From: Euryarchaeota archaeon Ods04
GTDB lineage: Archaea; Halobacteriota; Halobacteria; Halobacteriales; Halorutilaceae
Length of the DNA stretch: 20,732 bases
Assembly: GCA_028751055.1 (NCBI GenBank)
Contig: JAQZDD010000001.1
Coordinates: 1-20,732 of the forward strand
Direction: 5' to 3'
Shown here piece by piece: positions 1,186 to 18,780 of this stretch. The notes under the pieces are model-generated. The model did no database searches, was not told where the DNA came from, and saw nothing but the letters and a program-made list of their open reading frames with translations. Position 1 is the first letter of the stretch. Each line of letters opens with the position of its first letter. The translations under genes and the position numbers were made by a program.

Positions 1186-1382
1186 AGATGGACGGGGAAA
1201 CAGAGGGGACAGGGACGGAGGCGGAGGCAGAGGCGGAAACGAAGGTAGAGAAAGAGGTGGATACTAAGAAGAAGACGGGGATGGAGACAGAGGCGGAGAC
1301 AGAGGCAGAGGCAGATACTAAGACAAAGACGGAAACGAAAGCAGAGGCAGAGACGAACACTAAGACGAAGGAGGCTGTATGA
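1182..1382 (+). CDS. Low-complexity Glu/Ala/Thr/Lys-rich mini-protein
   Basis: This 66-residue reading frame is almost entirely E, A, T, K and D, built from alternating pairs such as EAEAEAET and ETEAEAD. It has no recognisable domain and could form a charged single helix or coiled coil, or be disordered. It overlaps the upstream stop by ATGA (1182-1185) and the downstream start by ATGA (1379-1382), so it fills exactly the space between the UspA-like and GNAT genes in a coupled layout. The coding strand is nearly all purine and made of hexamer-like GAGGCR/GAGACR units, so it may have grown by repeat expansion. It could be a real linker peptide or merely a repeat that stays open. I favour translated but of unknown function. 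Confidence 0.45.
   Translation: MKMDGETEGTGTEAEAEAETKVEKEVDTKKKTGMETEAETEAEADTKTKTETKAEAETNTKTKEAV
1194..1375 (+). repeat. Imperfect GAGRCN hexamer repeat, polypurine tract
   Basis: The stretch is dominated by in-frame units such as GAGGCG, GAGGCA, GAGACA and AAGACG, giving Glu-Ala, Glu-Thr and Lys-Thr pairs. The plus strand is strongly purine-biased throughout. Such tracts can slip during replication and can form triplex structures. The array stays in frame over its whole length, which suggests selection against frameshifts or a recent origin. Confidence 0.65.
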
Positions 1383-5673: not shown

Positions 5674-6411
5674 TCACATGTACGCCCTGTCCTCAGAGAT
5701 GCGTCTCCTTGACTCCTTCTCGAACATCTCCATCCTGTCTGCGAGATGCTCGTAGTGCTGTCTGAGTTCGCGGGCGTACTCCTCCAGCGGCGCGGTGTCA
5801 ATCTCCACATCGTAGACATCCTCGAACGCGTGAATCAGCCTCAACGCCGCCTCGACATCCTGCGCGGGCGGATGCACGGGTGTCACGAGCACACCGACCG
5901 AGAGCGACGTGTCGATTCCGCGCGCCACCAGGTCGGCGTGCACGCCTTCCAAGAAGCCACCGCCCATCGCCTCTAGCTCGTCCTCGACGCGCGGACGGTA
6001 GTCGTCGGTTGCGACGTAGTAGACGCCGTGCTGGTCTGGTCCGTGGGGTGCGACGATGCCTGAAAGCACGACTATCTCGTCTACTCCGTTGCGCTCAGTC
6101 CAGTCCATGACGGCGTCTGCGAACGGACGCACCGCGCCGAGCGGTACGAAGAGTTCTCCCGCCAAGACTGTGAGGTCGTGTTCGTCGGACGAAAAGAGAC
6201 GCGTGTGGTGGCGCGGTCTGCCGTCCTCGAAAGGTGTTATCGACGGCAGGTCGTCGGTCTTGACGTGCCCCGTCTCCTCCAGACCGAGGTGCTGTACAAG
6301 GAAGTCGACGGCTGTCAGACCTGCGAGACCGAACTCCGACATACCGACGACGAGCGTCTTCGAGGGCTGTCCCTCGTGCTCTATCTCGAAGGTGGCTTTT
6401 TCAGGCTCCAT
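5674..6411 (-). CDS. PAC2-family proteasome assembly chaperone homologue
   Basis: A 245-residue protein. The N-terminal part KTLVVGMSEFGLAGLTAVDF and the later VDEIVVLSGIVAPHGPDQHG and SVGVLVTPVHPPAQDVEAAL are characteristic of the archaeal PAC2 (formerly DUF75) family, related to eukaryotic proteasome assembly chaperones and archaeal PbaA/PbaB. It likely works in the cytoplasm with the 20S core particle. The C-terminal helix (RELRQHYEHLADRMEMFEKE) ends in RAYM. This resembles the hydrophobic-Tyr-X tail by which proteasome partners dock into alpha-ring pockets, though alanine is a weak hydrophobic residue. It shares a 66 bp divergent spacer with the epimerase-family gene. Confidence 0.85.
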   Translation of the reverse strand: MEPEKATFEIEHEGQPSKTLVVGMSEFGLAGLTAVDFLVQHLGLEETGHVKTDDLPSITPFEDGRPRHHTRLFSSDEHDLTVLAGELFVPLGAVRPFADAVMDWTERNGVDEIVVLSGIVAPHGPDQHGVYYVATDDYRPRVEDELEAMGGGFLEGVHADLVARGIDTSLSVGVLVTPVHPPAQDVEAALRLIHAFEDVYDVEIDTAPLEEYARELRQHYEHLADRMEMFEKESRRRISEDRAYM

Positions 6412-6449
6412 GTTGTCTACTCAGACCCCGTGTTCTTGAATCTTCGGCG

Positions 6450-6455
6450 TTATTA
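6450..6455 (+). promoter_or_regulatory. TATA-like box for the epimerase-family gene
   Basis: TTATTA lies 22 nt before the ATG at 6478, in the 66 bp spacer shared with the divergent PAC2 gene. This is the usual spacing for a leaderless archaeal transcript. Confidence 0.5.
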
Positions 6456-6477
6456 GGCTCCGCTGTGTAGACGAGGT

Positions 6478-7245
6478 ATGCGTAACCTGATAGTCGGATG
6501 CGGCTTCGTCGGAAAGCGTCTCGCGCGCGAACTCGTGGAGAGAGGGGAGGAAGTCACCGCCGTCACACGCTCGGGTGTGTCGCTCGAAGGCGTCGAGAGC
6601 TTTGAGGCGGACGTGACGGACGACGCGCCCGAACTACCCGAAGCCGACCGCGTCTTCTACCTCGTAAGCGCGGGAGGGCGCGATACCGACGCGTACAGGA
6701 AGGCGTACGTCGAGGGTCTGCGGAACACTGTCAACGCTCTGGAGGATACGTCGCTCGTTTACTCGTCGTCGACGGGAGTCTACGAAACGGACGACGGCTC
6801 CTGGGTAGACGAGGAGACGGAGATAGACGCGACGAAGGAACGGACTCACGTGCTTCTCGAAGCAGAGGAACTGGCGCGCGACTCAGGCGGCACCGTAGTC
6901 CGTTTCGGCGGTCTGTACGGCGAGGGACGTATCGGCACCAACCGTTACCTTGACGGCGCGACCGTAAAGGCGGGCTACCTCAACCTGATACGTGGTGAGG
7001 ACGCCGCCACCGCACTTCTCGCGGCGGACGAAAGCGACGAAGACCTGTACGTCGCTGTCGATAACGAGCCTGTGCACAGACACGACCTGGCGCGGTGGAT
7101 GGCGGAGAAGACCGGACGCGAGGTCGGAAACCTTGTTGAGGAGACACGGACGCCCAACAAACGTTGCTCGAACAAACGTCTGCGCTCGACAGGATGGACG
7201 CCCGAGTATCCGACGTACAGAGAAGGATACGCGCCGTTTCTGTAA
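6478..7245 (+). CDS. YeeZ-like NAD(P)-binding epimerase/dehydratase family protein
   Basis: A 255-residue extended short-chain dehydrogenase-type protein. The N-terminus MRNLIVGCGFVGKRLAREL is a Rossmann G-x-G-x-x-G loop. VYSSSTGVYETDDGSWVDE follows in the position of the catalytic Ser/Thr strand. The usual YxxxK catalytic pair is not seen; the expected site reads TKERTHVLLEAEELA, as in the YeeZ-like subgroup, so classical epimerase chemistry is doubtful. The C-terminus (TPNKRCSNKRLRSTGW to GYAPFL) is a conserved terminal module. Its last 95 bp are repeated 7.4 kb away at 14678-14772, marking the edges of an island; the gene itself is intact. The ancestral neighbour downstream was probably the alcohol dehydrogenase. 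Confidence 0.85.
   Translation: MRNLIVGCGFVGKRLARELVERGEEVTAVTRSGVSLEGVESFEADVTDDAPELPEADRVFYLVSAGGRDTDAYRKAYVEGLRNTVNALEDTSLVYSSSTGVYETDDGSWVDEETEIDATKERTHVLLEAEELARDSGGTVVRFGGLYGEGRIGTNRYLDGATVKAGYLNLIRGEDAATALLAADESDEDLYVAVDNEPVHRHDLARWMAEKTGREVGNLVEETRTPNKRCSNKRLRSTGWTPEYPTYREGYAPFL
7151..7245 (+). repeat. Direct repeat copy 1: 3' end of epimerase-family gene, left island boundary
   Basis: These 95 bp, ending exactly at the TAA stop, match 14678-14772 with 87 identical positions and no gaps by hand alignment. Beyond the stop codon the two flanks show no similarity. Six of the eight differences fall in three codons plus the stop codon, and none breaks the frame. This looks like an attachment-site or recombination-derived duplication rather than chance. 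Confidence 0.9.
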
Positions 7246-7330
7246 CCGCAGTCCTCGACAGAGTCGGTTGAGAAAGCTTGCTTCGCTTCTGGTTCGACGC
7301 CGATTAAACAGTCGACGACCTCGTAAGAAC

Positions 7331-7336
7331 TAATAT
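7331..7336 (+). promoter_or_regulatory. TATA-like box for the beta-propeller gene
   Basis: TAATAT stands 22 nt before the ATG at 7359. The 113 bp between the end of the repeat and this gene otherwise holds nothing I can identify. It means the island's first gene has its own promoter and does not depend on the epimerase-family gene. Confidence 0.5.
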
Positions 7337-7358
7337 CCGGGAGTGTGCCAGCCCGTAT

Positions 7359-8783
7359 ATGTCGAAAAAGAGGCTGTTTTTTGTAATCTTCCTTATGTTT
7401 CTTGTTCTGTTTAGCGGAGCTGCCGTCGCCGCCGAAGACGAAACGGCTGTCGAAACGACGGTATACGTCGGTGGCGAAAACGGTAGCGTGTACGCTGTCG
7501 ACGCTTCGGACGGAACCGAGGTCTGGAGCATGGAAATCGAGGGTGCTGCTAGGATACTGTCGTCTCCTACTGTTGTAAACGGCACCGTGTACTTCGGTTC
7601 TATCGAGGAATTCGACGAAGATAGCTCCGACGACACCCGAAGTGAGGGAGATCCAGCGTTATATGCTGTGGACGCGGAGACCGGGGACGAAGAATGGGTG
7701 TTTACGGACACCGAAGGACCGGTTTTCTCATCACCCACCGTCGTAGACGGCAGGGTTTACTTCGGAGAGGCGAAAGACGCGGGCGGATTCGGAGGAGGAG
7801 TCTACTCCATAGATGCCGAAACGGGCGAGGAGGAATGGTCTCTTTCGGAGCCTATCGGAGACGTTACTTCTCGGCTTACGGTAGTAGACGGAAAGGTATT
7901 TTTCAACGACGCGGATGTACACGCTCTGGAAACCGAAGGAGGTCGACAGGTTTGGTCAGCGGAAGAGCATAGTATGACACCGACCGTGTCGAACGGTACC
8001 GTCTACACAGGAGATACCTCCGAGTTCGGAATGGGGGAAGACGGGATTGAGGTGGCTGAGGAAGCCGCTACTGCGTCTCTTGACGCGACGACAGGTGACT
8101 TGGTATCGGAAAGTTCTGTTTCCGAGGGCGTTTTCATCATGGTTTCTCCACCCACGGTAGTAGACGGAACCGTTTACGTGGGATACGTTGACTCGTTTGA
8201 GGGAGAGTCCGGAGTATACGCGTTCGATGCCGAAACTATGGACAAAAAATGGTCTAAACTCTTGGATAGCGACGTTGGCGAACTTCCGACACTATCGACC
8301 GCCTCCGACGGGATTATCTACGTCGGGGTGGGTGAGAGCCAGACTCCTTACGCATCCGTTTACGCTGTTGACTCAGAGACAGGTGATATAGAGTGGGAGA
8401 AAGACGACTTTGGTAAGGAAGTAACTTCTCCGACGGTGGCTGGAGACGCCGTATACGTTACCGATAACGAGACTCTGTATTCCTTGAACAAAAAGAGTGG
8501 AGAGGTGCTATGGCATAAGGAGGGCGAGTTCACCTCCACGCCGACGATCGTTGACACCCCGACTGACGGAGACAGCATCGATTCGCAGGTGATTTTGGGC
8601 ACCCTCGGTCACCACGAAGAATGGGCTGAAAAGGCGAGTTCGGCTGGTACGGACGGAGAGTTCAGGAACCAGAGCTCGCCTGAGGAAGCTGGCGGGACTG
8701 AGGAGCTACCTGGCTTCGGGTTTGTTGCCACAGTACTGGCTCTTGTGACATCGGCGTTGTTCGCCCGACGAAGACCGGAATGA
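7359..8783 (+). CDS. Secreted PQQ-type beta-propeller protein with PGF-CTERM anchor
   Basis: A 474-residue surface protein. The N-terminal signal peptide is MSKKRLFFVIFLMFLVLFSG with an AVAA-type end. It is followed by about eight propeller blades of the PQQ/quinoprotein type, each with a strand like TVVDGTVYVG and a blade end like YAVDAETGDEEW. The blades look structural: I see no enzymatic quinone-binding set, and the closest relatives in form are BamB-like scaffold propellers. The C-terminus reads EELPGFGFVATVLALVTSAL then FARRRPE, a PGF-CTERM tripartite anchor (PGF motif, hydrophobic helix, basic tail) processed by archaeosortase A in haloarchaea. It is therefore expected to end up lipid-anchored on the outer face. 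It is the only plus-strand gene in the island and converges with the membrane-protein genes. Confidence 0.88.
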   Translation: MSKKRLFFVIFLMFLVLFSGAAVAAEDETAVETTVYVGGENGSVYAVDASDGTEVWSMEIEGAARILSSPTVVNGTVYFGSIEEFDEDSSDDTRSEGDPALYAVDAETGDEEWVFTDTEGPVFSSPTVVDGRVYFGEAKDAGGFGGGVYSIDAETGEEEWSLSEPIGDVTSRLTVVDGKVFFNDADVHALETEGGRQVWSAEEHSMTPTVSNGTVYTGDTSEFGMGEDGIEVAEEAATASLDATTGDLVSESSVSEGVFIMVSPPTVVDGTVYVGYVDSFEGESGVYAFDAETMDKKWSKLLDSDVGELPTLSTASDGIIYVGVGESQTPYASVYAVDSETGDIEWEKDDFGKEVTSPTVAGDAVYVTDNETLYSLNKKSGEVLWHKEGEFTSTPTIVDTPTDGDSIDSQVILGTLGHHEEWAEKASSAGTDGEFRNQSSPEEAGGTEELPGFGFVATVLALVTSALFARRRPE

Positions 8784-8848
8784 AAGAGAACTAAGCTTTG
8801 GGCAGGTTCACATCTCGGAACTCTACTGGAGCCGACTTGACACCAATT

Positions 8849-9133
8849 TCAGTCGAGAGGCGTAGAAATATATGGGGCAACGAAAAGTATCAGAACATAC
8901 ACAACAACGGCTTGCTTCCAGCTCACTTCGACGCCGATGTTACTGAGGAACTTTCTGCCGCGCGGTCTGGCTACGATACCGGTCACGAAAAAAAGAATTC
9001 CTGCCAGATAGTTACCTATGTACAGTTCTTCTGCGTCCATTATTTCAGTTAATATGACAGACGCCCCGATAGAGAAGTAGAACCAACCCAATGCCCACCA
9101 GACCGTGTTAGTCGTCGCTTGTCTTACTGTCAT
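8849..9133 (-). CDS. Small three-helix membrane protein, unknown function
   Basis: Ninety-four residues with three predicted membrane segments: about 10-32 (WWALGWFYFSIGASVILTEI), 40-57 (IGNYLAGILFFVTGIVA) and 73-90 (WKQAVVVYVLILFVAPYI). I do not recognise a family. It is last in a same-strand series after the GLUG gene and another membrane protein, 63 bp after the latter. A weak TCAATAGG about 23 nt before its ATG could be its own promoter. It converges with the beta-propeller gene across 65 bp that hold nothing else visible. Possible roles include partner or stabiliser of the surface proteins, but nothing in the sequence proves it. Confidence 0.6.
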   Translation of the reverse strand: MTVRQATTNTVWWALGWFYFSIGASVILTEIMDAEELYIGNYLAGILFFVTGIVARPRGRKFLSNIGVEVSWKQAVVVYVLILFVAPYISTPLD

Positions 9134-9196
9134 TCTGTTTTCGTCGAGTTTCAGACCTATTGAGTCCGATTTTTCCCTCTGAAGGAGTCCGTGGTT

Positions 9197-9616
9197 TTAC
9201 AGGAACTCTTCGACGCCGTTCATCCGGTCATCTCTTCCTTCGCAGCCCAGTAGTATCGACCTCCTTGTTACGATGTACACCACCATCACCGGTACGTTGA
9301 CTATCGGGACAGCACCCCACATGAAGATGGCACTCGGGAACCTCCCCACTTCTTCGCGCAGATAGATACGGTCTTCGGAGATCCAGTGCAGATATCTGAA
9401 GGGATTGTACCAAAATAATCCCAGTATGGGTATAAAAACTATAATAAAGAATATTATCAGGTCCAAATCTCGAAGAAGGGGATCATCCAGAGGATAGAAA
9501 AAGTAATCTACGAGCTCAGAATACATAATACCAATAGAAAATATTATGTTTATTATGAAAGTACGCCGAAGGATGACGTACCCTTTCGATCCATCCTGAT
9601 CTTCGTCTGAGGTCAT
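9197..9616 (-). CDS. Multi-pass membrane protein coupled to the GLUG gene
   Basis: A protein of 139 residues starting MTSDEDQDGSKGYVIL. A longer frame exists upstream but runs antiparallel through the GLUG coding region as an Arg-rich shadow, so the start at 9616 is chosen. Its ATG overlaps the GLUG stop codon (TCAT on the plus strand, 9613-9616), a 4-bp overlap typical of translational coupling. Three hydrophobic segments lie at about 15-35, 52-70 and 93-113, with charged loops between them. No family recognised. Much of the gene is AT-rich (about 33% GC in the line at 9421), unlike the GLUG gene it is coupled to. Coupling suggests a stoichiometric partner of the surface adhesin-like protein. 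Confidence 0.65.
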   Translation of the reverse strand: MTSDEDQDGSKGYVILRRTFIINIIFSIGIMYSELVDYFFYPLDDPLLRDLDLIIFFIIVFIPILGLFWYNPFRYLHWISEDRIYLREEVGRFPSAIFMWGAVPIVNVPVMVVYIVTRRSILLGCEGRDDRMNGVEEFL

Positions 9617-11202
9617 ATGCGTAGATACCTCCGATACGTGACGGAAAAGACGGCTACCGCCACCAACGCCGCTACGACACCGAAGCCGGGGAGTCTCTCC
9701 TCGTCCGCTGGCGCGTCGTCTACCTGCCAAGCGAGACTTGGGTAGTCGTCCTCCGTGGTTCGCCACGTCTCCTCGAAGTCGAAGCCGTCCATGTTGTCGC
9801 GCGCCGCGGAGCCGGTCATTTCGTCCGTCGCCAGTCCCGTGCCTCCAGCTGACTCGTCCTGTCCCGTCGCTTCGATGTCCCAGTAAGAGGATTCGACTTC
9901 GCCGTCGGCGACTTCCTCATCTCTGTCCGGCAGTTCCTGTACATCCTCTCCGACCAGACCGCCGACGTTCTCGCCGCCCGTTACGGCTCCTGCTGCGTAC
10001 GTCTCCTCAATAAGGAAGCCCGCGTTCGCCCCAAGCAGCCCACCGACACTCCGCTCGCCAGTGACGTCGCCCGTAGCGTATGACGCGTTCAATATACTGT
10101 TCGCCACGGGGGTATCCTCCTCAGCGAGGGCGATACCTGCGAGTCCGCCGACGTTCTCTTCACCCCTTACGTCGCCCGTCGCGTATGATTCGGTGACTCG
10201 CCACACAGTACCACCGGCGAGTCCGCCGACTCTAGTTTCGCCGGAGACATCACCCGTAGCGTAGGACTCGTTGATATAACCGAGGTTGAATCCAACGAGA
10301 CCACCGACCGCACCTTCTCCGGAGACATCGCCTGTAGCGTAAGACCCGTTGACTCTGCTTCCAATCGCTGCGAGTCCGCCGACTGCACTTTCGCCGGAGA
10401 CGTCACCTGTAGCATAGGATTCAGAAATTAATGGTATCTCAAAATCCACCGCGCTAAATAGAATGAGATCCATAGACCTCGTCCCAATCAGTCCGCCGAC
10501 ACCCTCTTTGCCCGTCACGTCGCCTGTGGCGTAGGACTTGCGTACCTCAAGGCTAGAACCGGCGAGTCCGCCGACACCCTCTTCGCCTGTCACGTCGCCG
10601 ATGGCGTTGGAACCCACGACTGCGTTTCCGTGTCCTACAACTCCACCAACTCTTTCGACGCCCGTAACGTCCGCCGCCGATTCCGAAGCGTTTACCAAGG
10701 TGAGACTGTTTCCGACGACACCGCCGATTGTTTTGTTTCCGGATATCTCTCCGGATACGTATACGTCGGATATCCGTGTATCGGCTCCGAACGCCGTCCC
10801 CGCGAGACCGCCGACGTTTTCGTCGCCCACGACGTTGACGTTTTTGAGCCTGACGTCCTCGACCGAGCCGTTGACTACGGCTCCGAACACACCGACATCG
10901 CTCTCGTTCGGACGGTCTATACGCAGGTTCGAGATACTGTGTCCGTTGCCGTTGAGGCTCCCGCTGAACCCATCGATAGGACCCCCCGTAAACACACCCA
11001 TCGGCTCGAAGTCGTAGCCAGAAGCGTTGATGTCGTCGACGAGGACGTAGTCGCCGTCAAGGTCTTCTCGGATGTCCTGTAGCTCCTGCGCGTTCGATAT
11101 CTCTGTCGCGTCTTGCGCGGCGACGCCGCACGTGGAGAAGACTAAGAATACGAAAACCAGCAGCAGCCAAGTGACTAAAGTCGCCGACATGCGGTTTCCC
11201 AT
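9613..11202 (-). CDS. GLUG-repeat adhesin-like surface protein with PGF-CTERM anchor
   Basis: A 529-residue exported protein. Residues 1-30 are a signal peptide (MSATLVTWLLLVFVFLVFST, ending GVAAQ). Residues 35-125 hold a start module (ISNAQELQDIREDLDGDYVL, then GFSGSLNGNGHSISNL) common to GLUG proteins. From about 126 to 420 there are roughly ten repeats of the type SYATGDVSGEGAVGGLVG, the GLUG motif found in adhesin-like proteins and forming a beta-solenoid. The C-terminus LPGFGVVAALVAVAVFSV plus TYRRYLRI is a PGF-CTERM anchor, so archaeosortase A should attach it to the cell surface. The start at 11202 is preceded by a TATA-like box at about 30 nt; an ATG four codons later is also possible. 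The small membrane protein downstream overlaps its stop. Confidence 0.88.
   Translation of the reverse strand: MGNRMSATLVTWLLLVFVFLVFSTCGVAAQDATEISNAQELQDIREDLDGDYVLVDDINASGYDFEPMGVFTGGPIDGFSGSLNGNGHSISNLRIDRPNESDVGVFGAVVNGSVEDVRLKNVNVVGDENVGGLAGTAFGADTRISDVYVSGEISGNKTIGGVVGNSLTLVNASESAADVTGVERVGGVVGHGNAVVGSNAIGDVTGEEGVGGLAGSSLEVRKSYATGDVTGKEGVGGLIGTRSMDLILFSAVDFEIPLISESYATGDVSGESAVGGLAAIGSRVNGSYATGDVSGEGAVGGLVGFNLGYINESYATGDVSGETRVGGLAGGTVWRVTESYATGDVRGEENVGGLAGIALAEEDTPVANSILNASYATGDVTGERSVGGLLGANAGFLIEETYAAGAVTGGENVGGLVGEDVQELPDRDEEVADGEVESSYWDIEATGQDESAGGTGLATDEMTGSAARDNMDGFDFEETWRTTEDDYPSLAWQVDDAPADEERLPGFGVVAALVAVAVFSVTYRRYLRI
9943..10827 (-). repeat. GLUG tandem repeat region
   Basis: The region encodes residues about 126-420 of the GLUG protein. 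About ten imperfect units share SYATGDV-x-G-x-x-x-VGGLAG with variable spacers. At DNA level the repeats are visible as recurring variants of CCGGAGACGTCACCTGTAGC followed by a YATG-coding part. One unit carries a longer spacer near 10430-10480 (residues 241-260, with LILFSAVDFEIPL). Such arrays can gain or lose units by recombination. Confidence 0.85.
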
Positions 11203-11231
11203 CGGGTTATCTATGCTTATTGAGCAAGGAA

Positions 11232-11238
11232 CTTATAT
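11232..11238 (-). promoter_or_regulatory. TATA-like box for the GLUG gene
   Basis: On the minus strand ATATAAG is placed 29 nt before the ATG at 11202 and overlaps the last codon of the upstream coiled-coil gene. It suggests the GLUG gene can be transcribed separately from the two-gene unit before it, giving a leader of a few nucleotides. Confidence 0.45.
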
Positions 11239-12285
11239 CTCCGCGTCTCTTGCTTTCCGGAGTGTTTCGATCAGCTTCTCGGATCTGAGTAATACTCGTG
11301 TAGCAACTACCTCATCTAATTTCTTTTCTCTTTGTGAAGTGACTTGATTCTTGAATGCCTCAACCGAGTTTATAATAGAATCTATCCTGTTATTCAAGCT
11401 CCTTTCATTCCGCCCCTCTTTTGCGTCGTCCCTTATTTCCTCTATCCTATCCAGTATATTATCGATTTTATTCCGTATTCCCTCCGATCTCCTACCGCCC
11501 CTGCCGTTTCCGCTACTTCCGCGTCCTCTGGAGGAATCGTCTACGTTCCTCTGTGTAAGTCTCCTAATTGTCTCAGCTTGCTGAGTAGCTCTTTCAAGCA
11601 GATCTATTTTGTTCTTCACTTGGATTCTGATTCTAATCCTGTCAAATCCTTCTTGCGAGAGGGCGGACAAAGTGACCTCTGACTCGGTAGATTCGTTTCC
11701 CCCTACTCCTATTTCAACATCAGCTGAACTCATTCTTTCCAACTCACCTATACCAGCCGATAGAGATATGTCAATGTCGGAGTCTATTTCGATTTTGAGA
11801 TTTTCCGTTTTCCTTCGTCCTACATTCTCTATCGTGTACACAGCAGTCTTCTTTGTTCCTTTTATTACTTCCACGGTCTCAGGCCCGGATATAGAGAGTA
11901 TGGCTGGGAAGTCCGCGTTTTCTATATCCGACAATACGTCTTCGGAAGCATCTAAGAACCTCTCCTCGGCGTCTATAGCTGATTTCACTACTGATAGGGC
12001 ATCATCCATATCTATCCCTCCACCGACGAACAGAGAAACAGACAGACGCAGTCTCGTTCTCACACTTCTCACTTCGGATACGGCTGACCTAAAATTCCTG
12101 ACGGAGACGGGGACTTCTTCGTCCAACTTCACGTCGGATTTGATCCCGTTTGTCGCCTTCATTAGGACACCTTCTCTTCTTCTCCTCTGTGAGAATTCCT
12201 CCGATAATTCCGGGAATCTCCTGAGTATCTCTGACCTATCTTCCTTTTCAATAAGCCTTTTCAGTTTTTCTAAGTCTTTTGTCAT
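11233..12285 (-). CDS. Coiled-coil protein with Ig-like middle domain, unknown function
   Basis: A 350-residue protein with no signal peptide. Residues 1-125 are helical and charged. About 128-225 look like an Ig-like or CARDB-like beta domain ([20 protein letters not shown], then TIENVGRRKTENLKIEID). This is followed by a helix, a Gly/Arg/Ser linker (SSRGRGSSGNGRGGRRSEG) and a C-terminal helical region likely to form a coiled coil (IDNILDRIEEIRDDAKEG). I do not recognise a named family. It starts 6 bp after the Tat-exported protein gene, with a strong Shine-Dalgarno sequence lying over that gene's last codons, so the two are almost certainly co-expressed. It is AT-rich relative to the flanks. 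Being cytoplasmic by sequence, it may handle or regulate its exported partner. Confidence 0.65.
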   Translation of the reverse strand: MTKDLEKLKRLIEKEDRSEILRRFPELSEEFSQRRRREGVLMKATNGIKSDVKLDEEVPVSVRNFRSAVSEVRSVRTRLRLSVSLFVGGGIDMDDALSVVKSAIDAEERFLDASEDVLSDIENADFPAILSISGPETVEVIKGTKKTAVYTIENVGRRKTENLKIEIDSDIDISLSAGIGELERMSSADVEIGVGGNESTESEVTLSALSQEGFDRIRIRIQVKNKIDLLERATQQAETIRRLTQRNVDDSSRGRGSSGNGRGGRRSEGIRNKIDNILDRIEEIRDDAKEGRNERSLNNRIDSIINSVEAFKNQVTSQREKKLDEVVATRVLLRSEKLIETLRKARDAEI

Positions 12286-12291
12286 CTATTG

Positions 12292-14562
12292 TTACCTCCT
12301 CTGGGTTATGGATTGGAGTATTGGATTTATTTCACCAATATCATTTTTTATGTCTTCAACAGCATTCTCGCTTACTGCTTGTGCTATTCTATCTATGGCT
12401 ATCTCAATCCTCTCAAAATTAATTATGCCGTTCACTCCTAATACATGAACAAGCTGTATATCATTCAATCCTTTAGCTCCTATTATGGAACCAGATAAAT
12501 CAGCCAGAGAATCCGCGCTACTCAGTAGCGCGGCATATGCCAGTATCACTGTGGCGGCAACGGCAGCCTTTTCAAAGCTAGGTCCGTCAACAATTAGAAG
12601 TGCTAATACTGTCAGTGTTATGCCCACAAAGACCCCTCCTACTACTGTCTGTCCGAAGTTAAGTAGGTTCAATTTCTCCAGAGTATCCTCGGCTTTAGTT
12701 TCTACTGCTCGTTGACCATTTTCTGAGAAGGATTCTCTTAGTTCAGATCCAGATGACGATAGTATAGATTCGTTTATATTATCATCCAGATCCTCCATTG
12801 AGGAGTTTATAACATTATCCACCCCGAATACCGGTAAGAATAAAAATACGTTATAATATGTTTTCGAGAGACTGAAGTTATTTCGCGTAGATTTGAAGCC
12901 TTCTCTGACAGTATTTATTTGCTCTTCTATCCGGTTAGCAGTTTCCCCAACAAAAGTCTCCGCCACGTCTTCGTTAATATCCTCGTCCAAATTTCTGAGG
13001 GAGCTTAAATCACCGAAGCTATCGGGGTTAGCTAGACTGCTAAGATTAATCGATGTGGTAGATTCAATTTCTTCAGTAACTACGTCGGCAATATCTTCAA
13101 GTTCCTCCGAGAAGGGGCCATAAAATCCATCTCTGTCTGCGTCAAAGGAACCACCCAGAATATCTTCCTCTATATCCTCTTCCAAGCTTATCAATTCATC
13201 TCTTATTCTTTCTTGTCGGGCTCCTGGGAGTGTATCTATACCCAGTATATCATCTCTGGCATCTTCAGCATCGTCAATAAAATCATCAATATACGGGATA
13301 AGATCATCTTTTATGAGGTCTTCTACGACACCTTTTGCCAAATCTATTCCTCCGGCAATATCAGCAGCACTCTCATTAATAGCCTTTCTAAGTATCTTAG
13401 CTCCGACTATCTGGACAGTAAAACTGAACGAAAATTCGGCTATTTCCTCGGCTATGTCTGGGCCCTGACCCACCGATTCTTTTGTTATTCCTTCGCTAAG
13501 TATCTGCCTTTGTACTCCCTCGTTGAATTGATTCTGTTTCTCTGGAGTTGCTTCGGGAAACTCTTCCTCTATCTCTTCAAGGAGAATTTCGGCTTCCTCA
13601 TCAAGATTGTCAGCGTCGTCTCCAATAATATCACGAGCCTCGTCTCTGATGTCGGCTATCAGATCATTTTTGTCATCAACAAGATCCTCTATATCATCAA
13701 GCTGTGGCTCATTACCGATCTCCTCGCCCTCGCAGTCGTTGAGAGGATACTCCAGAAGCTCGGAATTCACGGTTTCGGGTGGATGTATCGCGCGGTTCAC
13801 CCACACGTATCTGTCGTAGTTCACTCTGGTTGAACTCCCGCTCTCACGCCCCATGGCTCGGAACCGAGGTCCGACTTCGAATCCGCTTCCGTCATAGAAT
13901 GAACTGCCCTCCTGCACGAAGCCCGTACCGTCATTGACATAGACGGTATATGTGTTAGCGTCCGCGTCAAGGACGATGCGTATCTGGTACCACTGCCCGT
14001 CTTGGAAGTTCCTCCCGTCTCCGAAGGTTCCTCCGACGGGAATGTCTGCTCCCCCGAACACGTTCCGGAAGAAGAGACCGTTACCGGCTATTCCGTTCGT
14101 GAAGGCACGGAAACCTGTTCTTATGCTGTCGGCGTCGTTGAAGAGGTAGGCTAAATTCCCTCCGGACTCATGTTTCCAGTGACAGTCTATCGTGACGCTA
14201 TCCTCTGCTCTGAAATTGAAGTTTATGTCAATGCCACCATCGTCTTCTATTTCTAGCGAACACTCGGACTCCTGTGTGTTCGTGGATGCGCCTTCTTCAT
14301 TCCAGCTGAAGTCACCGACGATCGTCCCGTCGGGCGGATCCGCTGGATTCGTAACGCGGTCGTCTTCTCCTAAGATACCTACAGATGGATTGTAATCTCC
14401 CTCGTACTTTTCTCCTCTGTCGTCAACAGGATACTCTTTTTCTTCTTTCTCCGCGATCACGGTAGGGGTGGCACCAAGTCCCGCAAAGCCGACCGTACCG
14501 GTGTAACGCAGGATATCTCTGCGATTGTACTGACAATCTTCTTCGTCATATTTCCTTGGCAT
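12292..14562 (-). CDS. Tat-exported lectin-like / long helical / membrane-hairpin protein
   Basis: A protein of 756 residues in three parts. A Tat signal at residues 13-37 (NRRDILRYTGTVGFAGLG) directs export of a folded protein. Residues about 78-270 look like a concanavalin/LamG-type beta domain (QWYQIRIVLDADANTYTVYV is typical). After about 275 the protein is long, acidic and helical, with coiled-coil character. It ends with two close hydrophobic segments at about 639-658 and 666-681 (VVGGVFVGITLTVLALLI and AAVAATVILAYAALL) and a short tail. GC content drops from 60% in a lectin-part line (13981) to 42% (13321) and 32% (12301) in the helical part, changing near 13690-13740 at the domain boundary, so the gene looks like a fusion. 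A strong TATA box lies upstream. Function unknown; domain boundaries are approximate. Confidence 0.7.
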   Translation of the reverse strand: MPRKYDEEDCQYNRRDILRYTGTVGFAGLGATPTVIAEKEEKEYPVDDRGEKYEGDYNPSVGILGEDDRVTNPADPPDGTIVGDFSWNEEGASTNTQESECSLEIEDDGGIDINFNFRAEDSVTIDCHWKHESGGNLAYLFNDADSIRTGFRAFTNGIAGNGLFFRNVFGGADIPVGGTFGDGRNFQDGQWYQIRIVLDADANTYTVYVNDGTGFVQEGSSFYDGSGFEVGPRFRAMGRESGSSTRVNYDRYVWVNRAIHPPETVNSELLEYPLNDCEGEEIGNEPQLDDIEDLVDDKNDLIADIRDEARDIIGDDADNLDEEAEILLEEIEEEFPEATPEKQNQFNEGVQRQILSEGITKESVGQGPDIAEEIAEFSFSFTVQIVGAKILRKAINESAADIAGGIDLAKGVVEDLIKDDLIPYIDDFIDDAEDARDDILGIDTLPGARQERIRDELISLEEDIEEDILGGSFDADRDGFYGPFSEELEDIADVVTEEIESTTSINLSSLANPDSFGDLSSLRNLDEDINEDVAETFVGETANRIEEQINTVREGFKSTRNNFSLSKTYYNVFLFLPVFGVDNVINSSMEDLDDNINESILSSSGSELRESFSENGQRAVETKAEDTLEKLNLLNFGQTVVGGVFVGITLTVLALLIVDGPSFEKAAVAATVILAYAALLSSADSLADLSGSIIGAKGLNDIQLVHVLGVNGIINFERIEIAIDRIAQAVSENAVEDIKNDIGEINPILQSITQRR
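12294..12300 (-). promoter_or_regulatory. Shine-Dalgarno AGGAGGT for the coiled-coil gene
   Basis: On the minus strand AGGAGGT lies 8 nt before the ATG at 12285 and overlaps the last Arg codons and stop of the upstream gene. It is the strongest ribosome binding site I see in the window, where first genes mostly look leaderless. It decides this start and indicates co-translation from a two-gene mRNA. Confidence 0.85.
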
Positions 14563-14584
14563 GTGGTCAGAACTAGTGCCACGG

Positions 14585-14594
14585 GTATAAAAAT
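14585..14594 (-). promoter_or_regulatory. TATA box driving the island's two-gene unit
   Basis: The minus strand reads ATTTTTATAC, 22 nt before the ATG at 14562, a good archaeal TATA element with leaderless spacing. The surrounding 14563-14670 is very AT-rich. It would drive the Tat-exported protein and its downstream partner, perhaps reading on into the GLUG genes. Confidence 0.65.
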
Positions 14595-14615
14595 TTCATT
14601 TCAAAAATGTCTACA

Positions 14616-14634
14616 TGTTTAATGTAAGTAAACA
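14616..14634. repeat. Short inverted repeat near right island edge
   Basis: TGTTTA and TAAACA are perfect 6-bp arms around a 7-base spacer, about 44 bp inside the right-hand direct repeat and about 22 bp upstream of the TATA box of the minus-strand unit. It could be an operator or part of an attachment site. In such AT-rich DNA it could also be chance. Confidence 0.3.
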
Positions 14635-14677
14635 AGAATTATTGGATCACTGATATTTCTCGGGTGAGCAGAGCGCG

Positions 14678-14772
14678 CGCCCAACAAACGTTGCTCGAAC
14701 GAACGTCTGCGCTCGGCGGGATGGACGCCCGAGTATCCGACGTACAGAGAAGGGTACGCGCCGCTCCTATGA
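14678..14772 (+). pseudogene. Direct repeat copy 2: orphan 3' end of the epimerase-family gene
   Basis: Ninety-five bases match 7151-7245 at 87 positions without gaps and still read as the gene's C-terminus (PNKRCSNERLRSAGW to GYAPLL, stop TGA), but no gene body precedes it; an in-frame TGA lies at 14665-14667. The changes are Lys to Glu, Thr to Ala, Phe to Leu, two silent changes and a different stop codon, a pattern expected of two formerly functional alleles rather than decay of a dead copy. It marks the right boundary of the island. The alcohol dehydrogenase start lies 46 bp beyond the stop codon. Confidence 0.9.
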
Positions 14773-14792
14773 CGTGACAACCTGCACGAAGC

Positions 14793-14799
14793 TTATTTT
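14793..14799 (+). promoter_or_regulatory. TATA-like box for the alcohol dehydrogenase
   Basis: TTATTTT sits 19 nt before the ATG at 14819 and 34 nt before the in-frame ATG at 14834. It lies outside the island, just after the orphan gene end, so insertion of the island has not removed the dehydrogenase's promoter. Confidence 0.45.
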
Positions 14800-14818
14800 C
14801 CTCGGCTTCCATACACGT

Positions 14819-15886
14819 ATGGGGGATAACCCAATGAAAGCATTCGTAATGAACGGCATAGGGGAGACCGGATTCGCGGAGAAAGAAGAACCACAAGCGG
14901 GACCGAACGACGCCGTCGTGAAGCCCACGAAGGGACTGGTCTGCACGTCGGACGTGCACACGTTACACGGCGCGATAGGCGAGCGCGAGAACCTGACACT
15001 CGGACACGAGACGGTCGGTGTCGTCGAGGAGGTCGGCGAAAACGTCGAGGAGTTCGAACCCGGCGACCGCGTCGCTGTCGGTGCCATCACACCCGACTGG
15101 GGTTCGGCGGCTGCGCAGGACGGACATCCGTCGCAGTCGAAGGAGCCGTTGGGCGGCTGGAAGTTCGCCAACGTCAAGGACGGCACCTTCGCCGAGTACG
15201 TCCACGTCAACGAGGCGGACGCAAACATGGCACGCATACCCGAAGACGTGACCGACGAGGAAGCCGTCTACATCACCGACATGATGAGCACGGGCTTCAT
15301 GGGCGCGGAGCATGCCGAGATACCTGTCGGCGGCACCGTCGCAGTCTTCGCTCAGGGTCCTGTCGGGCTGATGGCGACGAAGGGTGCGGAGCTACAGGGC
15401 GCGGGACGTATCATCGCCGTCGAGTCGGTGCCCAAGCGGCAGGAACTTGCGCGCGAGTACGGCGCGGACGAGATAGTCAACTTCGAGGAGGGCGACCCCG
15501 TGGAGCAGATACACGACCTGACAGACGGCGAGGGCGTCGACTCGGCGATAGAGGCACTGGGAACGAGCGGAACCTTCGAACAGTGTGTGAAGGTCACCAA
15601 GGCAGGCGGCACCGTCTCGAACATCGGCTACCACGGAGAGGGCGAGCACGTCAACATCCCCCGCGAGGAGTGGGGCGTCGGCATGGCTGAGATAGACATC
15701 GCCACGGGTCTATGTCCCGGCGGAAGGCTACGTCTCGAACGCCTCCTGCGTCTCATAGAGAACGGCCGTGTCGACCCGACACATATGACGACGCACGAGT
15801 TCGGATTCGACGAGATAGACGAGGCTTTCCGTCTGATGGAGACGAAGGAGGACGGCATAATCAAGCCGCTGATACTGTTCGACTGA
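14819..15886 (+). CDS. Zinc-dependent secondary alcohol dehydrogenase, T. brockii ADH type
   Basis: A medium-chain dehydrogenase of 355 residues. It resembles Thermoanaerobacter brockii isopropanol dehydrogenase along its length, including CTSDVHT, LGHETVG, AITPDW, GWKFANVKDGTFAEY and CPGGRLRLERLL. Catalytic zinc ligands are Cys37, His58 and the Asp of DMMSTGF (numbering from MKAFVM). The cofactor strand reads GRIIAVESVPKR: where the NADP-dependent relatives have Gly-Ser-Arg, this has Glu-Ser-Val, which argues for NAD(H). It interconverts secondary alcohols and ketones, or possibly other alcohols. The start at 14819 follows a TATA-like box; the ATG at 14834 matches the family N-terminus exactly and is an equal alternative. 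An ATG at 14774 is too close to the TATA box to be used. It converges with cdc48. Confidence 0.9.
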   Translation: MGDNPMKAFVMNGIGETGFAEKEEPQAGPNDAVVKPTKGLVCTSDVHTLHGAIGERENLTLGHETVGVVEEVGENVEEFEPGDRVAVGAITPDWGSAAAQDGHPSQSKEPLGGWKFANVKDGTFAEYVHVNEADANMARIPEDVTDEEAVYITDMMSTGFMGAEHAEIPVGGTVAVFAQGPVGLMATKGAELQGAGRIIAVESVPKRQELAREYGADEIVNFEEGDPVEQIHDLTDGEGVDSAIEALGTSGTFEQCVKVTKAGGTVSNIGYHGEGEHVNIPREEWGVGMAEIDIATGLCPGGRLRLERLLRLIENGRVDPTHMTTHEFGFDEIDEAFRLMETKEDGIIKPLILFD

Positions 15887-15912
15887 GGGCGTCTACTCTA
15901 CTTTTACTACGT

Positions 15913-18150
15913 CTACTGGAACGTCCTTTCAGGCTCCCTTTCGGTCTCGGGAACCTTCTCGGCGTCTATCTCCTCGGCTATCTTCTCGTACCTCTTCATG
16001 TCCTCGTCGTCGAGCGACGGCTTCACCTTGTCGAGAGCCTTCTCGAAGTCGTCCTCCGTGATAAGGACGTTTCCGACCGACGTGTCTATATCCTCTGGGT
16101 CGACGCTCTCGATGAAGCTCCTCATCGCGTTCATGCTTGCCACACGTGTGAGTGCCTCTAAGTCGCTGCCTGTGTAGCCCTCCGTCCTTTCGGCGATGTC
16201 GTCTAAGTCGACGCCGTCGGCAAGCGGCGAGCCGCGTGTATGGATGCGCAGTATCTCGCGCCGCGCCTCCTCGTCTGGAACGGGAACCTCGACGAGAGAG
16301 TCAAGGCGTCCGGGACGCAGGAGCGCGTTGTCGATACGGTCGGGGCGGTTTGTGGCGGCGACGACCTTGACGTTCTTTAGCTCCTCGATTCCGTCGAGTT
16401 CGGTCAGGAGCTGTGAGACGACGCGTTCGGTGACCTGCGAGTCGAAAGAGCCGCCGCGTTCGGGTGCTATAGAGTCTATCTCGTCGAAGAAGATTATCGT
16501 CGGCGCGTTCTGACGTGCCTTCTTGAAGACCTCGCGTACGCCTTTCTCCGACTCACCGACGTACTTGTTGAGAAGCTCAGGTCCCTTGACGGAGATGAAG
16601 TTGGAGTTGCTCGCGTTCGCAACAGCCTTCGCAAGAAGCGTCTTGCCCGTGCCGGGCGGACCGTACATGAGTATGCCCTTCGCGGGTTCTGTGTTAAGCT
16701 CCTCGAAGACCTGCGGGTACTGCAGGGGCCATTCGATGGCTTCGACCATCTCCTGCTTGACATCTTCAAGACCTCCGACGTCGTCGTAGGTCACGTCGGG
16801 TACCTCGACGAAGACCTCGCGCATCGCACTTGGCTCGACAGCGCGCATCGCCGCCTCGAAGTCGTCGTCACGTACCTTGAGGTCTTCGAGCACGTCGGCG
16901 GGTATCTCCTCCTCCTCTATGTCGATACGCGGTCGGACACGCCGCAGAGCCGACATAGCCGCCTCCTTCGTTAGCGTCGCTATGTCGGCACCCACGAAGC
17001 CGTAGGTCTGGTCTGCGATGTCGTCAAGGTCGACGTCGTCGGTCAGAGGCATGCTCCGCGAATGTATCTGGAGTATCTCGAGCCTTCCGTCGCGGTCGGG
17101 CACGCCTATCTCGATTTCGCGATCGAACCTACCGCCGCGCCGCAGAGCGTTGTCGACCGCGTCGACGCGGTTGGTGGCTGCGATTACCATGACATCGCCG
17201 CGCTCCTCCAGACCGTCCATGAGCGAAAGAAGTTGTGCGACGATACGGCGTTCCATCTCGCCGCTGACCTCGTCGCGCGACGGCGCGATGGAGTCGATTT
17301 CATCTATGAAGATTATGGCGGGCGAGTTCTCCTCGGCTTCCTCGAATATCTCACGTAGCTGCTCCTCGGACTCGCCGTAGTACTTCGACATGATTTCGGG
17401 ACCCGAGACGGTCGAGAAGTGTGCGTCGACCTCGTTTGCGACAGCCTTCGCAATCATCGTCTTGCCCGTTCCGGGCGGTCCATGAAGCAGGACTCCCTTA
17501 GGCGGCTCTATACCGAGCTGCTCGAAAAGCTCGGGATGGCGAAGAGGCAGTTCTATCATCTCCCGCACCTGTTCGAGTTCGTCGTTCAGCCCGCCGATGT
17601 CCTCGTAGGTCACGTCGGGCACGTCGCCCGTGCTGCCTTCGATGTCCGCCTCCGTCGCGGGTTCGGAGTCCCATTCGAGCGTCGTGTTCCTTCCGACGAC
17701 GACAGCACCCGAAGGACTCGTCGACTTGACCACGAAGGCGAGCCTGTTGTTGAGCAGGCTGTGCTGGAATATCTGACCTTTCTTCACAGGTCTGTCGACG
17801 AGTGCCTCCTTGAGGCGTCTCTCCAGATGCCCCGGACTACCGCGTATCCTGACGGGCTGGGCGGGCGCGACGGTGATGCTGTCCGCCACCTCCGTCTCGA
17901 TAGACGACACCTCAACCTTCTCGTCTATACGTGCGTCGGCGTTCTTGCGCGTCTCGCCGTCTATCGCAATAAGACCGCGCGGTATGTCGGCGGGTGCAGC
18001 CTTCGCAACCGCCTCCCTGTCACCCGATATCTCGATTATGTCCCCAGACGTTATGCCGAGTTCCCTCATAACCGAGTCGTTTATAGCCGCTATTCCCCTG
18101 CCAGCGTAACGCTGGTTGTCGAGTCTGCTGACCTTGAGATTGACTGACAT
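15913..18150 (-). CDS. cdc48: Cdc48/p97/VAT-type AAA+ unfoldase
   Basis: A 745-residue hexameric ATPase that unfolds proteins, working with the proteasome in archaea. An N domain covers residues 1-about 175 (double-psi barrel beginning [18 protein letters not shown]). D1 has Walker A GPPGTGKT at 224-231 and Walker B IIFIDEID at 279-286, with the sensor and arginine-finger region [14 protein letters not shown]2 has a second GPPGTGKT at 497-504, IIFFDEID at 552-559 and ALLRPGRLD. Both sites look intact. The tail ends EREPERTFQ, without a clear hydrophobic-Tyr-X motif. The start at 18150 is set by the conserved N-terminus; a longer frame reaches 18294 but crosses the promoter. Divergent from the NYN gene. 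Confidence 0.97.
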
Positions 18151-18173
18151 AACTAACCAAGAGTAAGTAGAGG

Positions 18174-18184
18174 TTAATAATAAA
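18174..18184 (-). promoter_or_regulatory. TATA box for cdc48
   Basis: The minus strand reads TTTATTATTAA, with its inner edge 23 nt before the ATG at 18150. This is a good TATA element and sets the start at MSVNLKV rather than the longer upstream frame. The 132 bp divergent spacer to the NYN gene holds no other clear element apart from a weak CATTAG near 18250. Confidence 0.65.
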
Positions 18185-18282
18185 CCTTTCGGCAAAACGA
18201 GACCTACGGCGCACGCGGACACCGTGTCTCGCGTCCGTATCCGGAAAGCATTAGTTCGTCGGCACGTATCCGCGTCCAACAG

Positions 18283-18780
18283 ATGCCTGTTCATCCTGAC
18301 CAGTCCGTGTCGGTGCTAGTCGACACCCAGAACATGTACCACGCCGCACAGAACCTCTACTCGAACAACTTAGACTACTCGTCCGTGCTCGAAGAGGCGA
18401 CCAAGGAGAGACGTCTGCGGCGTGCTCTCGCGTACGTCGTACGTACCGACACGGAGGAGGAAGAGACCTTCTTCGACGCCCTGACACGGATAGGCTTCGA
18501 GACGAAGGTCAAGGAGATGAAGGAGTATCCCGACGGCACGCGGAAGGCGAACTGGGACATGGGTATCGCAATCGACGCTATCACGTTCGCGCCGCATCTT
18601 GATGCCATGGTGCTCTGTACGGGAGACGGTGACTTCACGCGTCTCGTTCACCACGTACGCGAGAAGGGTGTGCGTGTCGAGATAATGGGGTTCGGGAGTA
18701 GCACGTCGCAGGAACTCATCGATGCCTCCGACGACTTCATAGACCTTCAGGAAGACCCCGACCGTTTCGTGCTCGGCTGA
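18283..18780 (+). CDS. NYN-domain (LabA/DUF88) PIN-like putative RNase
   Basis: A 165-residue protein with the NYN/PIN-like fold: [19 protein letters not shown] carries the first acidic residue (D14), [13 protein letters not shown] the middle pair (D92, D98), and [20 protein letters not shown] the third cluster (D115, D117). This is the full acidic set expected to bind metal for RNA cleavage. It is related to the LabA/MARF1 NYN group. The target is unknown. It reads away from cdc48 and converges on the HD gene, whose last 34 bp overlap its own 3' end. A weak CATTAG lies 28 nt before the start. Confidence 0.88.

What the first reader, a model, noticed from the sequence alone, without database searches (positions are those of the whole stretch)
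7151..14772. A 7.4-kb island sits between two copies of the last 95 bp of a gene
The 3' end of the YeeZ-like gene (7151-7245) recurs at 14678-14772 with 87 of 95 positions identical, in direct orientation, and both copies end exactly at a stop codon, beyond which similarity vanishes. This is the footprint of elements that integrate in a gene's 3' end and restore it, but here the target is a protein gene, not a tRNA. Removing one repeat plus the insert would place the gene's stop codon 46 bp before the alcohol dehydrogenase.
Basis: seen in the sequence. Interest (0 to 1): 0.85.

Follow-up and report, generated by a model that had tools for sequence, protein, structure and literature searches.

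The report
Surface-gene island at a gene's tail
A salt-loving archaeon appears to have taken a block of mostly surface- and membrane-type genes into its chromosome at the very end of an ordinary enzyme gene, leaving the old gene tail stranded on the far side; this is a clear scar of DNA capture but of a kind already known.

Summary
7151-7245, the last 95 bp of an epimerase-like ("YeeZ-like") gene, recurs in direct orientation at 14678-14772 with 87/95 identity (E 5.9e-34 in its own genome); similarity stops sharply on both sides. The contig belongs to the genus of Halorutilus salinus. The slot between this gene and CDC48 differs in all four family genomes held: empty in MAG Ods01; one Condensation-domain gene in G003; pntAB, an IS200/IS605 element, a methyltransferase and an alcohol dehydrogenase (ADH) in H. 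salinus; this island, the tail relic and the ADH in the window. I found no relic in the other three. The two tails are each other's closest relatives (8 differences over 93 coding bases, all transitions), so they separated after the split from H. salinus. No integrase, transposase or replication gene was recognised in the island; it encodes a clear and a weaker PGF-CTERM-type surface protein, two small membrane-type proteins and a LamG/p350 pair that recurs in five other genomes of the order. I favour capture anchored by homologous recombination in the gene's 3' end (about 0.5) over a decayed or non-autonomous site-specific element (about 0.3). Known kind of event; modest interest.

The parts
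6478..7245 (+). Epimerase-like gene ('YeeZ-like', 255 aa), intact; its last 95 bp are repeat copy 1
   Evidence: Pfam NAD_binding_10/Epimerase; matches in 55 of 59 genomes searched, own included
7151..7245 (+). Repeat copy 1: live 3' end of the gene, stop TAA
7359..8783 (+). Secreted PQQ-type beta-propeller protein with PGF-CTERM tail
   Evidence: PQQ_2 1.6e-39; TIGR04126 28 bits, cut-off 24.5; such proteins are common, 29 of 31 genomes
8849..9133 (-). Small putative membrane protein (by eye), 94 aa, no family
   Evidence: one weak PHROG match, E 0.061
9197..9616 (-). Putative membrane protein (by eye), 139 aa, no family above cut-off
9613..11202 (-). GLUG-repeat surface protein, 529 aa, PGF-CTERM-like tail below the curated cut-off
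   Evidence: PF07581 2.2e-17; TIGR04126 0.0048; phrog_30905 3.5e-20, function unknown; internal repeats D1
11233..12285 (-). p350: protein of unknown family, partner of the LamG-like gene; AlphaFold2 model with helices, one Ig-like domain, helices
12292..14562 (-). LamG-like protein, 756 aa, Tat-type signal by eye
   Evidence: some homologues carry PF13385 or are named LamG-like jellyroll proteins; no Pfam match of its own; 8 of 98 genomes, own included
14678..14772 (+). Repeat copy 2: displaced orphan 3' end of the epimerase-like gene, stop TGA
14834..15886 (+). Zinc-type alcohol dehydrogenase, shared with H. salinus at this place, not with G001 or G003
15913..18294 (-). CDC48-type AAA ATPase, conserved far flank of the variable slot in the four family genomes held

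Best explanation
The slot between the epimerase-like gene and CDC48 is a place of gene turnover in this family. In the window's lineage the gene once ended directly upstream of the ADH. A stretch of foreign or strain-specific DNA, starting inside a near-identical copy of the same gene and running on into an island of surface- and membrane-type genes, then entered. One side was anchored by homologous recombination in the gene's 3' end; the other side joined without long homology 95 bp before the old stop codon (homology-facilitated illegitimate recombination, or a single crossover of a circle carrying that tail). The gene stayed whole with the incoming tail (copy 1), and the old tail (copy 2) now lies 7.5 kb downstream. 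Shown: repeat, sharp borders, empty or differently filled slot in relatives, closeness of the two tails, no recognised recombination gene. Inferred: the order of events, which tail is the incoming one, the donor, and the recombination route.
For: Repeat and borders. Four different contents of the same slot in the 4 family genomes held, window included. No relic seen in relatives: one copy of the tail each in G001 and G002; best ungapped matches in the H. salinus and G003 intervals at shuffled level. Copies 1 and 2 are sisters: 8 differences over 93 coding bases, all transitions, against 14-20 differences with half or more transversions to H. salinus and G001; 6 informative sites group copy 1 with copy 2, against 1 and 1 for the alternatives. 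No PF00589 match on this contig and no mobility family in the 14 island ORFs scanned. GC3 is 0.44-0.66 in the island genes against 0.67-0.79 in the flanking genes.
Against: No donor arrangement (gene followed directly by this island, without the relic) was found, so the anchor side is unproven. No relative shows the gene abutting the ADH; the only empty site (G001) also lacks the ADH. The same footprint follows from a site-specific element. 95 bp is short for an unaided crossover between diverged strains (own knowledge). Which tail is older is not settled: one unambiguous change each, and residue frequencies separate them only weakly. Only four family genomes are held and the window's is a draft MAG.
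Confidence: 0.5

Rival explanations
1. Remnant or non-autonomous site-specific integrative element: its attP carried a copy of the gene's last 95 bp, integration restored the gene, and the integrase was lost or acted in trans.
For: In-frame copies both ending at a stop codon, gene whole, imperfect repeat. A comparable pattern is known for prophage e14 in icd: icd after excision differs from icdA by 12 SNPs, with an 11-bp repeat as the crossover site (PMC4759930, passage), and for thaumarchaeal elements. Integrase-family matches exist on other contigs of this genome, 2 places. A 35-bp exact stretch (7192-7226) lies inside the repeat (from the differences). The GLUG protein matches a PHROG family of unknown function (3.5e-20), as GLUG repeats may occur on viruses too.
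Against: No integrase on this contig; no mobility, replication or structural virus family in the island ORFs scanned. Intergenic gaps of at most 115 bp leave no room for a decayed one. Longest exact inverted match within 120 bp of the two ends 8 bp. One tail copy each in G001 and G002. No relatives of the LamG or p350 proteins in viral contigs or plasmids.
Confidence: 0.3
2. Old tandem duplication of the gene followed by loss of the second copy's 5' part and replacement by the island.
For: The two tails are each other's closest relatives.
Against: Upstream of copy 2 there is no trace of the rest of the gene, identity 25-30%. It needs two or more events, with a junction meeting lower-GC DNA.
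Confidence: 0.12
3. Assembly chimera of two strains in a metagenome.
For: The source is a 411-contig draft of 64% completeness. I saw no reads.
Against: Both tails are resolved as distinct sequences. The right-hand junction must exist in some molecule, because the 23 bp after it are gene-tail sequence (inference). The window's epimerase-like, LamG and p350 proteins are each listed with a longest contig of 34,709 bp, longer than the window, though perhaps from the same reads.
Confidence: 0.05

Closest known systems
e14 prophage in icd of E. coli (icdA/icdC)
   Same: Element between an intact 3' end and a displaced, slightly diverged 3' end of a protein gene; icd after excision differs from icdA by 12 SNPs (PMC4759930, passage)
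   Different: e14 is a prophage excised by site-specific recombination at an 11-bp repeat; here no recombinase and no prophage genes were recognised
Thaumarchaeal integrated mobile elements in 3' ends of protein genes
   Same: Archaeal; 14 of 68 in 3'-distal parts of protein genes (PMC6563490, passages)
   Different: Those are mobile elements with generally short repeats; here the repeat is 95 bp and no mobility gene was recognised
Displaced orphan modules of V. cholerae T6SS clusters and Rhs loci
   Same: An incoming module anchored by homology displaces an old part downstream; proposed route is akin to homology-facilitated illegitimate recombination (PMC5361080, passages)
   Different: Here the displaced part is the tail of a housekeeping-type enzyme gene, not a gene of the cargo system
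Pan-genomic islands and homeocassettes of Halorubrum ezzemoulense
   Same: Alternative cargo between the same two core genes in haloarchaea (PMC11078007, passages)
   Different: Cargo here shares no detected homologues with the alternative in H. salinus; compared between species, not strains

Membership tests
Site-specific (tyrosine integrase) integrative element | Direct repeats from the target gene's end at both borders | tested here: met
Site-specific (tyrosine integrase) integrative element | Integrase gene inside the element | tested here: not met
   no PF00589 match on this contig; no recombinase family in the 14 island ORFs scanned
Site-specific (tyrosine integrase) integrative element | Precise empty site in a relative | tested here: inconclusive
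   G001 is empty but also lacks the ADH; no gene-ADH junction found
Site-specific (tyrosine integrase) integrative element | Excision as a circle | not testable with these tools
   needs PCR or reads
Casposon | Terminal inverted repeats and Cas1 | tested here: not met
   longest exact inverted match within 120 bp of the ends 8 bp; no Cas1 family in the 14 island ORFs scanned
Homology-facilitated illegitimate insertion | Displaced fragment of the anchor gene beyond the cargo, without recombinase | tested here: met
Homology-facilitated illegitimate insertion | Donor in which the anchor gene runs directly into the same cargo | tested here: inconclusive
   not in the three family loci examined; few close genomes held, and neighbourhoods of more distant relatives were not read
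Variable slot between core genes (pan-genomic island) | Same flanking core genes, different contents | tested here: met
   4 of 4 family genomes held differ
Homeocassette | At least half of the alternative islands' genes are homologous | tested here: not met
   none of the six island proteins matches the H. salinus slot at E 1e-3 by tblastn

The most novel reading that the evidence does not exclude
The 3' end of this epimerase-like gene is a genuine attachment site in Halorutilus-like archaea for small elements without their own recombinase, which move surface-protein cassettes (such as the LamG/p350 pair) with an integrase supplied in trans.
Probability: 0.15. Interest if true: 0.6.

Novelty: new member of a known kind. 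Interest (0 to 1): 0.35.

Why it matters
It is a readable scar of how a haloarchaeon adds cell-surface genes without an obvious mobile element. The displaced tail names the anchor gene and places the capture after a species split, so the recombination route can be tested once close strains are sequenced. It also flags a recurring gene pair of unknown function (LamG-like protein plus p350) as cargo.

Tried and rejected
Rejected: full second gene decayed in place (no similarity upstream of copy 2); tRNA-targeted element (no tRNA in the window; none in 11 related loci); virus or plasmid island (viral-contig scans with the epimerase, LamG and p350 proteins confirmed no relative; plasmid searches with LamG and p350 found no match; the PHROG matches, the best being the GLUG protein at 3.5e-20 and the PQQ protein at 5.9e-5, are to families of unknown function); defence island (six island proteins, no PADLOC match at 0.01); RNA element (no Rfam match at gathering score in 6400-15900); casposon or transposon.

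Led nowhere: the structure of p350 (one model job, three sequences, mean pLDDT 80.7) shows only a common Ig-like domain, so no function follows. A solved-structure sequence search with p350 gave one match at E 0.51. The Halorutilus salinus paper (PMC10134839) was searched for six words (transposase, integrase, genomic island, horizontal, mobile, MAG) and held none. The Aeromonas additive-transfer paper (PMC11375855, passages) supports flanking homology as a common route but is bacterial. The paper searches were seen as listings, except for the papers named with passages.

Weakened on checking: I first read the residues of copy 1 as those of living genes and those of copy 2 as decay. In one search copy 1's Lys is in 5 and its Phe in 2 of 36 homologues, but these include the window's own protein (4 and 1 others, the four Lys entries being close to one another). 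Copy 2's two Ala are in 1 and 0 of 36. The contrast is slight, and the odds did not rest on it.
Full report
Observation. The last 95 bp of the epimerase-like gene at 6478-7245 recur at 14678-14772 in direct orientation with 87 of 95 positions identical. In the genome held (1,703,903 bases, 411 contigs, 64% complete) the tail occurs only at these two places, the second with E 5.9e-34. Similarity ends sharply: 25% identity over the 60 bp upstream and 18% over the 60 bp downstream. Copy 1 ends in TAA, copy 2 in TGA, and copy 2 keeps the reading frame.

Where it comes from. G002, in the same genus, has a 316,034-base contig with the gene at the coordinates of NZ_RKLV01000001.1 of Halorutilus salinus F3-133. 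G003 is in the same family. No further family members appeared when 100 relatives were asked for (98 genomes searched).

The slot in relatives. In the four family genomes held the epimerase-like gene lies upstream of, and convergent with, CDC48, but what lies between differs. G001: nothing, the two stop codons adjoin. G003: one gene with a Condensation domain. H. salinus: pntA, pntB, a DUF4864 protein, an IS200/IS605 transposase with a TnpB-like partner, a methyltransferase, then the ADH (88% identical to the window's). Window: six cargo genes, the orphan tail, then the ADH. The window genome's own pntA lies on another contig.

Search for other relics. A protein search with the gene in 59 genomes (own included) found matches in 55. 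Apart from the window, one other genome (G057) had a match limited to the C-terminal part (residues 167-251, in a 384-residue open frame), which I did not follow up. A DNA search with the tail in four genomes found one copy each in G001, G002 and G013. It found none in G003, not even the tail of its own gene, so it says nothing there. Ungapped scans of the H. salinus and G003 intervals gave 42 and 41 of 96 matches, no better than shuffled sequence (45 and 41), against 87 of 96 for the window relic.

Age and polarity. Over 93 coding bases (7150 to the codon before the stop) copy 1 and copy 2 differ at 8 sites, all transitions and none at a second codon position; the stop codons differ too. Each copy differs from H. 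salinus and G001 at 14-20 sites, half or more of them transversions. Six sites group the two copies together and one site supports each alternative. The tails therefore separated after the split from H. salinus, whether inside this genome or between it and a close donor. Which tail is the older is not settled: one unambiguous change falls on each. Among 36 homologues (the window's own included) copy 1's Lys and Phe occur in 5 and 2, copy 2's two Ala in 1 and 0, a slight contrast. The sample is about 95 bp, so this is suggestive only.

Cargo. A PQQ-type propeller protein with a PGF-CTERM tail, a GLUG-repeat protein with a weaker one, two small membrane-type proteins without family, p350 and a LamG-like protein. 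GC3 runs from 0.44 (LamG) and 0.46 (p350) to 0.66 (GLUG), against 0.67-0.79 for the flanking genes, so the island may itself be a mosaic. PQQ-type relatives are common (29 of 31 genomes) and say little. LamG relatives occur in 8 of 98 genomes including its own, one of them by a short weak match; p350 in 3 of 98 including its own. With an iterated profile, p350 was found next to LamG in 5 of the 7 other LamG loci fetched (L069, L070, L072, L073, L074; not L075, L076); ends overlap in 3 of the 5. In L070 the LamG gene is a weak match, and L071 holds a p350 without LamG. Relatives of LamG and p350 were not found in viral contigs or plasmids. The protein database gave 25 LamG and 3 p350 homologues, self included, from capped or large candidate lists.

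Mechanism. The footprint (intact gene, cargo, orphan tail) follows from any insertion in which the incoming DNA carries the gene's tail. A site-specific element should bring an integrase. None is on this contig, none of the 14 island ORFs scanned matches a mobility family, and the gaps between cargo genes (largest 115 bp) leave no room for a decayed one. Homologous recombination at one side with illegitimate joining at the other explains the footprint with one event and no recombinase. It has been proposed for displaced modules in Vibrio and Rhs loci (PMC5361080, passages), and haloarchaea are described as frequently recombining (PMC11078007, passages). The Vibrio paper also notes that this route is rare where it was measured. 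No donor was found, and a 95-bp duplicated tail is what a site-specific element could leave too, so I give about 0.5 against 0.3. Insertion as such, by whatever route, I hold at about 0.85.

Compared with what is known. Integration in 3' ends of protein genes is established in bacteria (e14 in icd, 12 SNPs between excised icd and icdA; PMC4759930, passage) and in archaea (14 of 68 thaumarchaeal elements; PMC6563490, passages; also PMC8371274, section 19 read). Alternative islands between the same core genes are known in Halorubrum (PMC11078007, passages). The finding is a new instance, not a new kind. For this locus itself I made only one literature search, on Halorutilus (11 papers listed, one searched for six words), so I make no claim that it is unpublished.

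Noticed in passing
window 11233-14562; L069, L070, L072, L073, L074: LamG-like gene and p350 form a recurring adjacent gene pair (ends overlap in 3 of 5 loci) in genomes of four other families of the order; p350 has no Pfam, NCBIfam (above cut-off) or PADLOC family.
   Followed up: partly
L043 15024-16734: IS200/IS605 element (Y1 transposase plus TnpB-like protein with a Cas12f1-type domain) in the same slot in Halorutilus salinus.
   Followed up: no
window 1205-1365: Cluster of short GA-rich direct repeats (family D2) just upstream of the acetyltransferase-like ORF at 1379.
   Followed up: no
L045 8097-9404 (minus strand): G003 carries a single gene with a Condensation domain in the slot between the epimerase-like gene and CDC48.
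   Followed up: no
C-terminal ends of P0001-P0036: The last residues vary between close homologues (20 of 36 end in APLL; others end in APLLDA, APLLRG, APLLG, VSLLS and so on), which would fit frequent changes of the sequence just behind this gene.
   Followed up: partly
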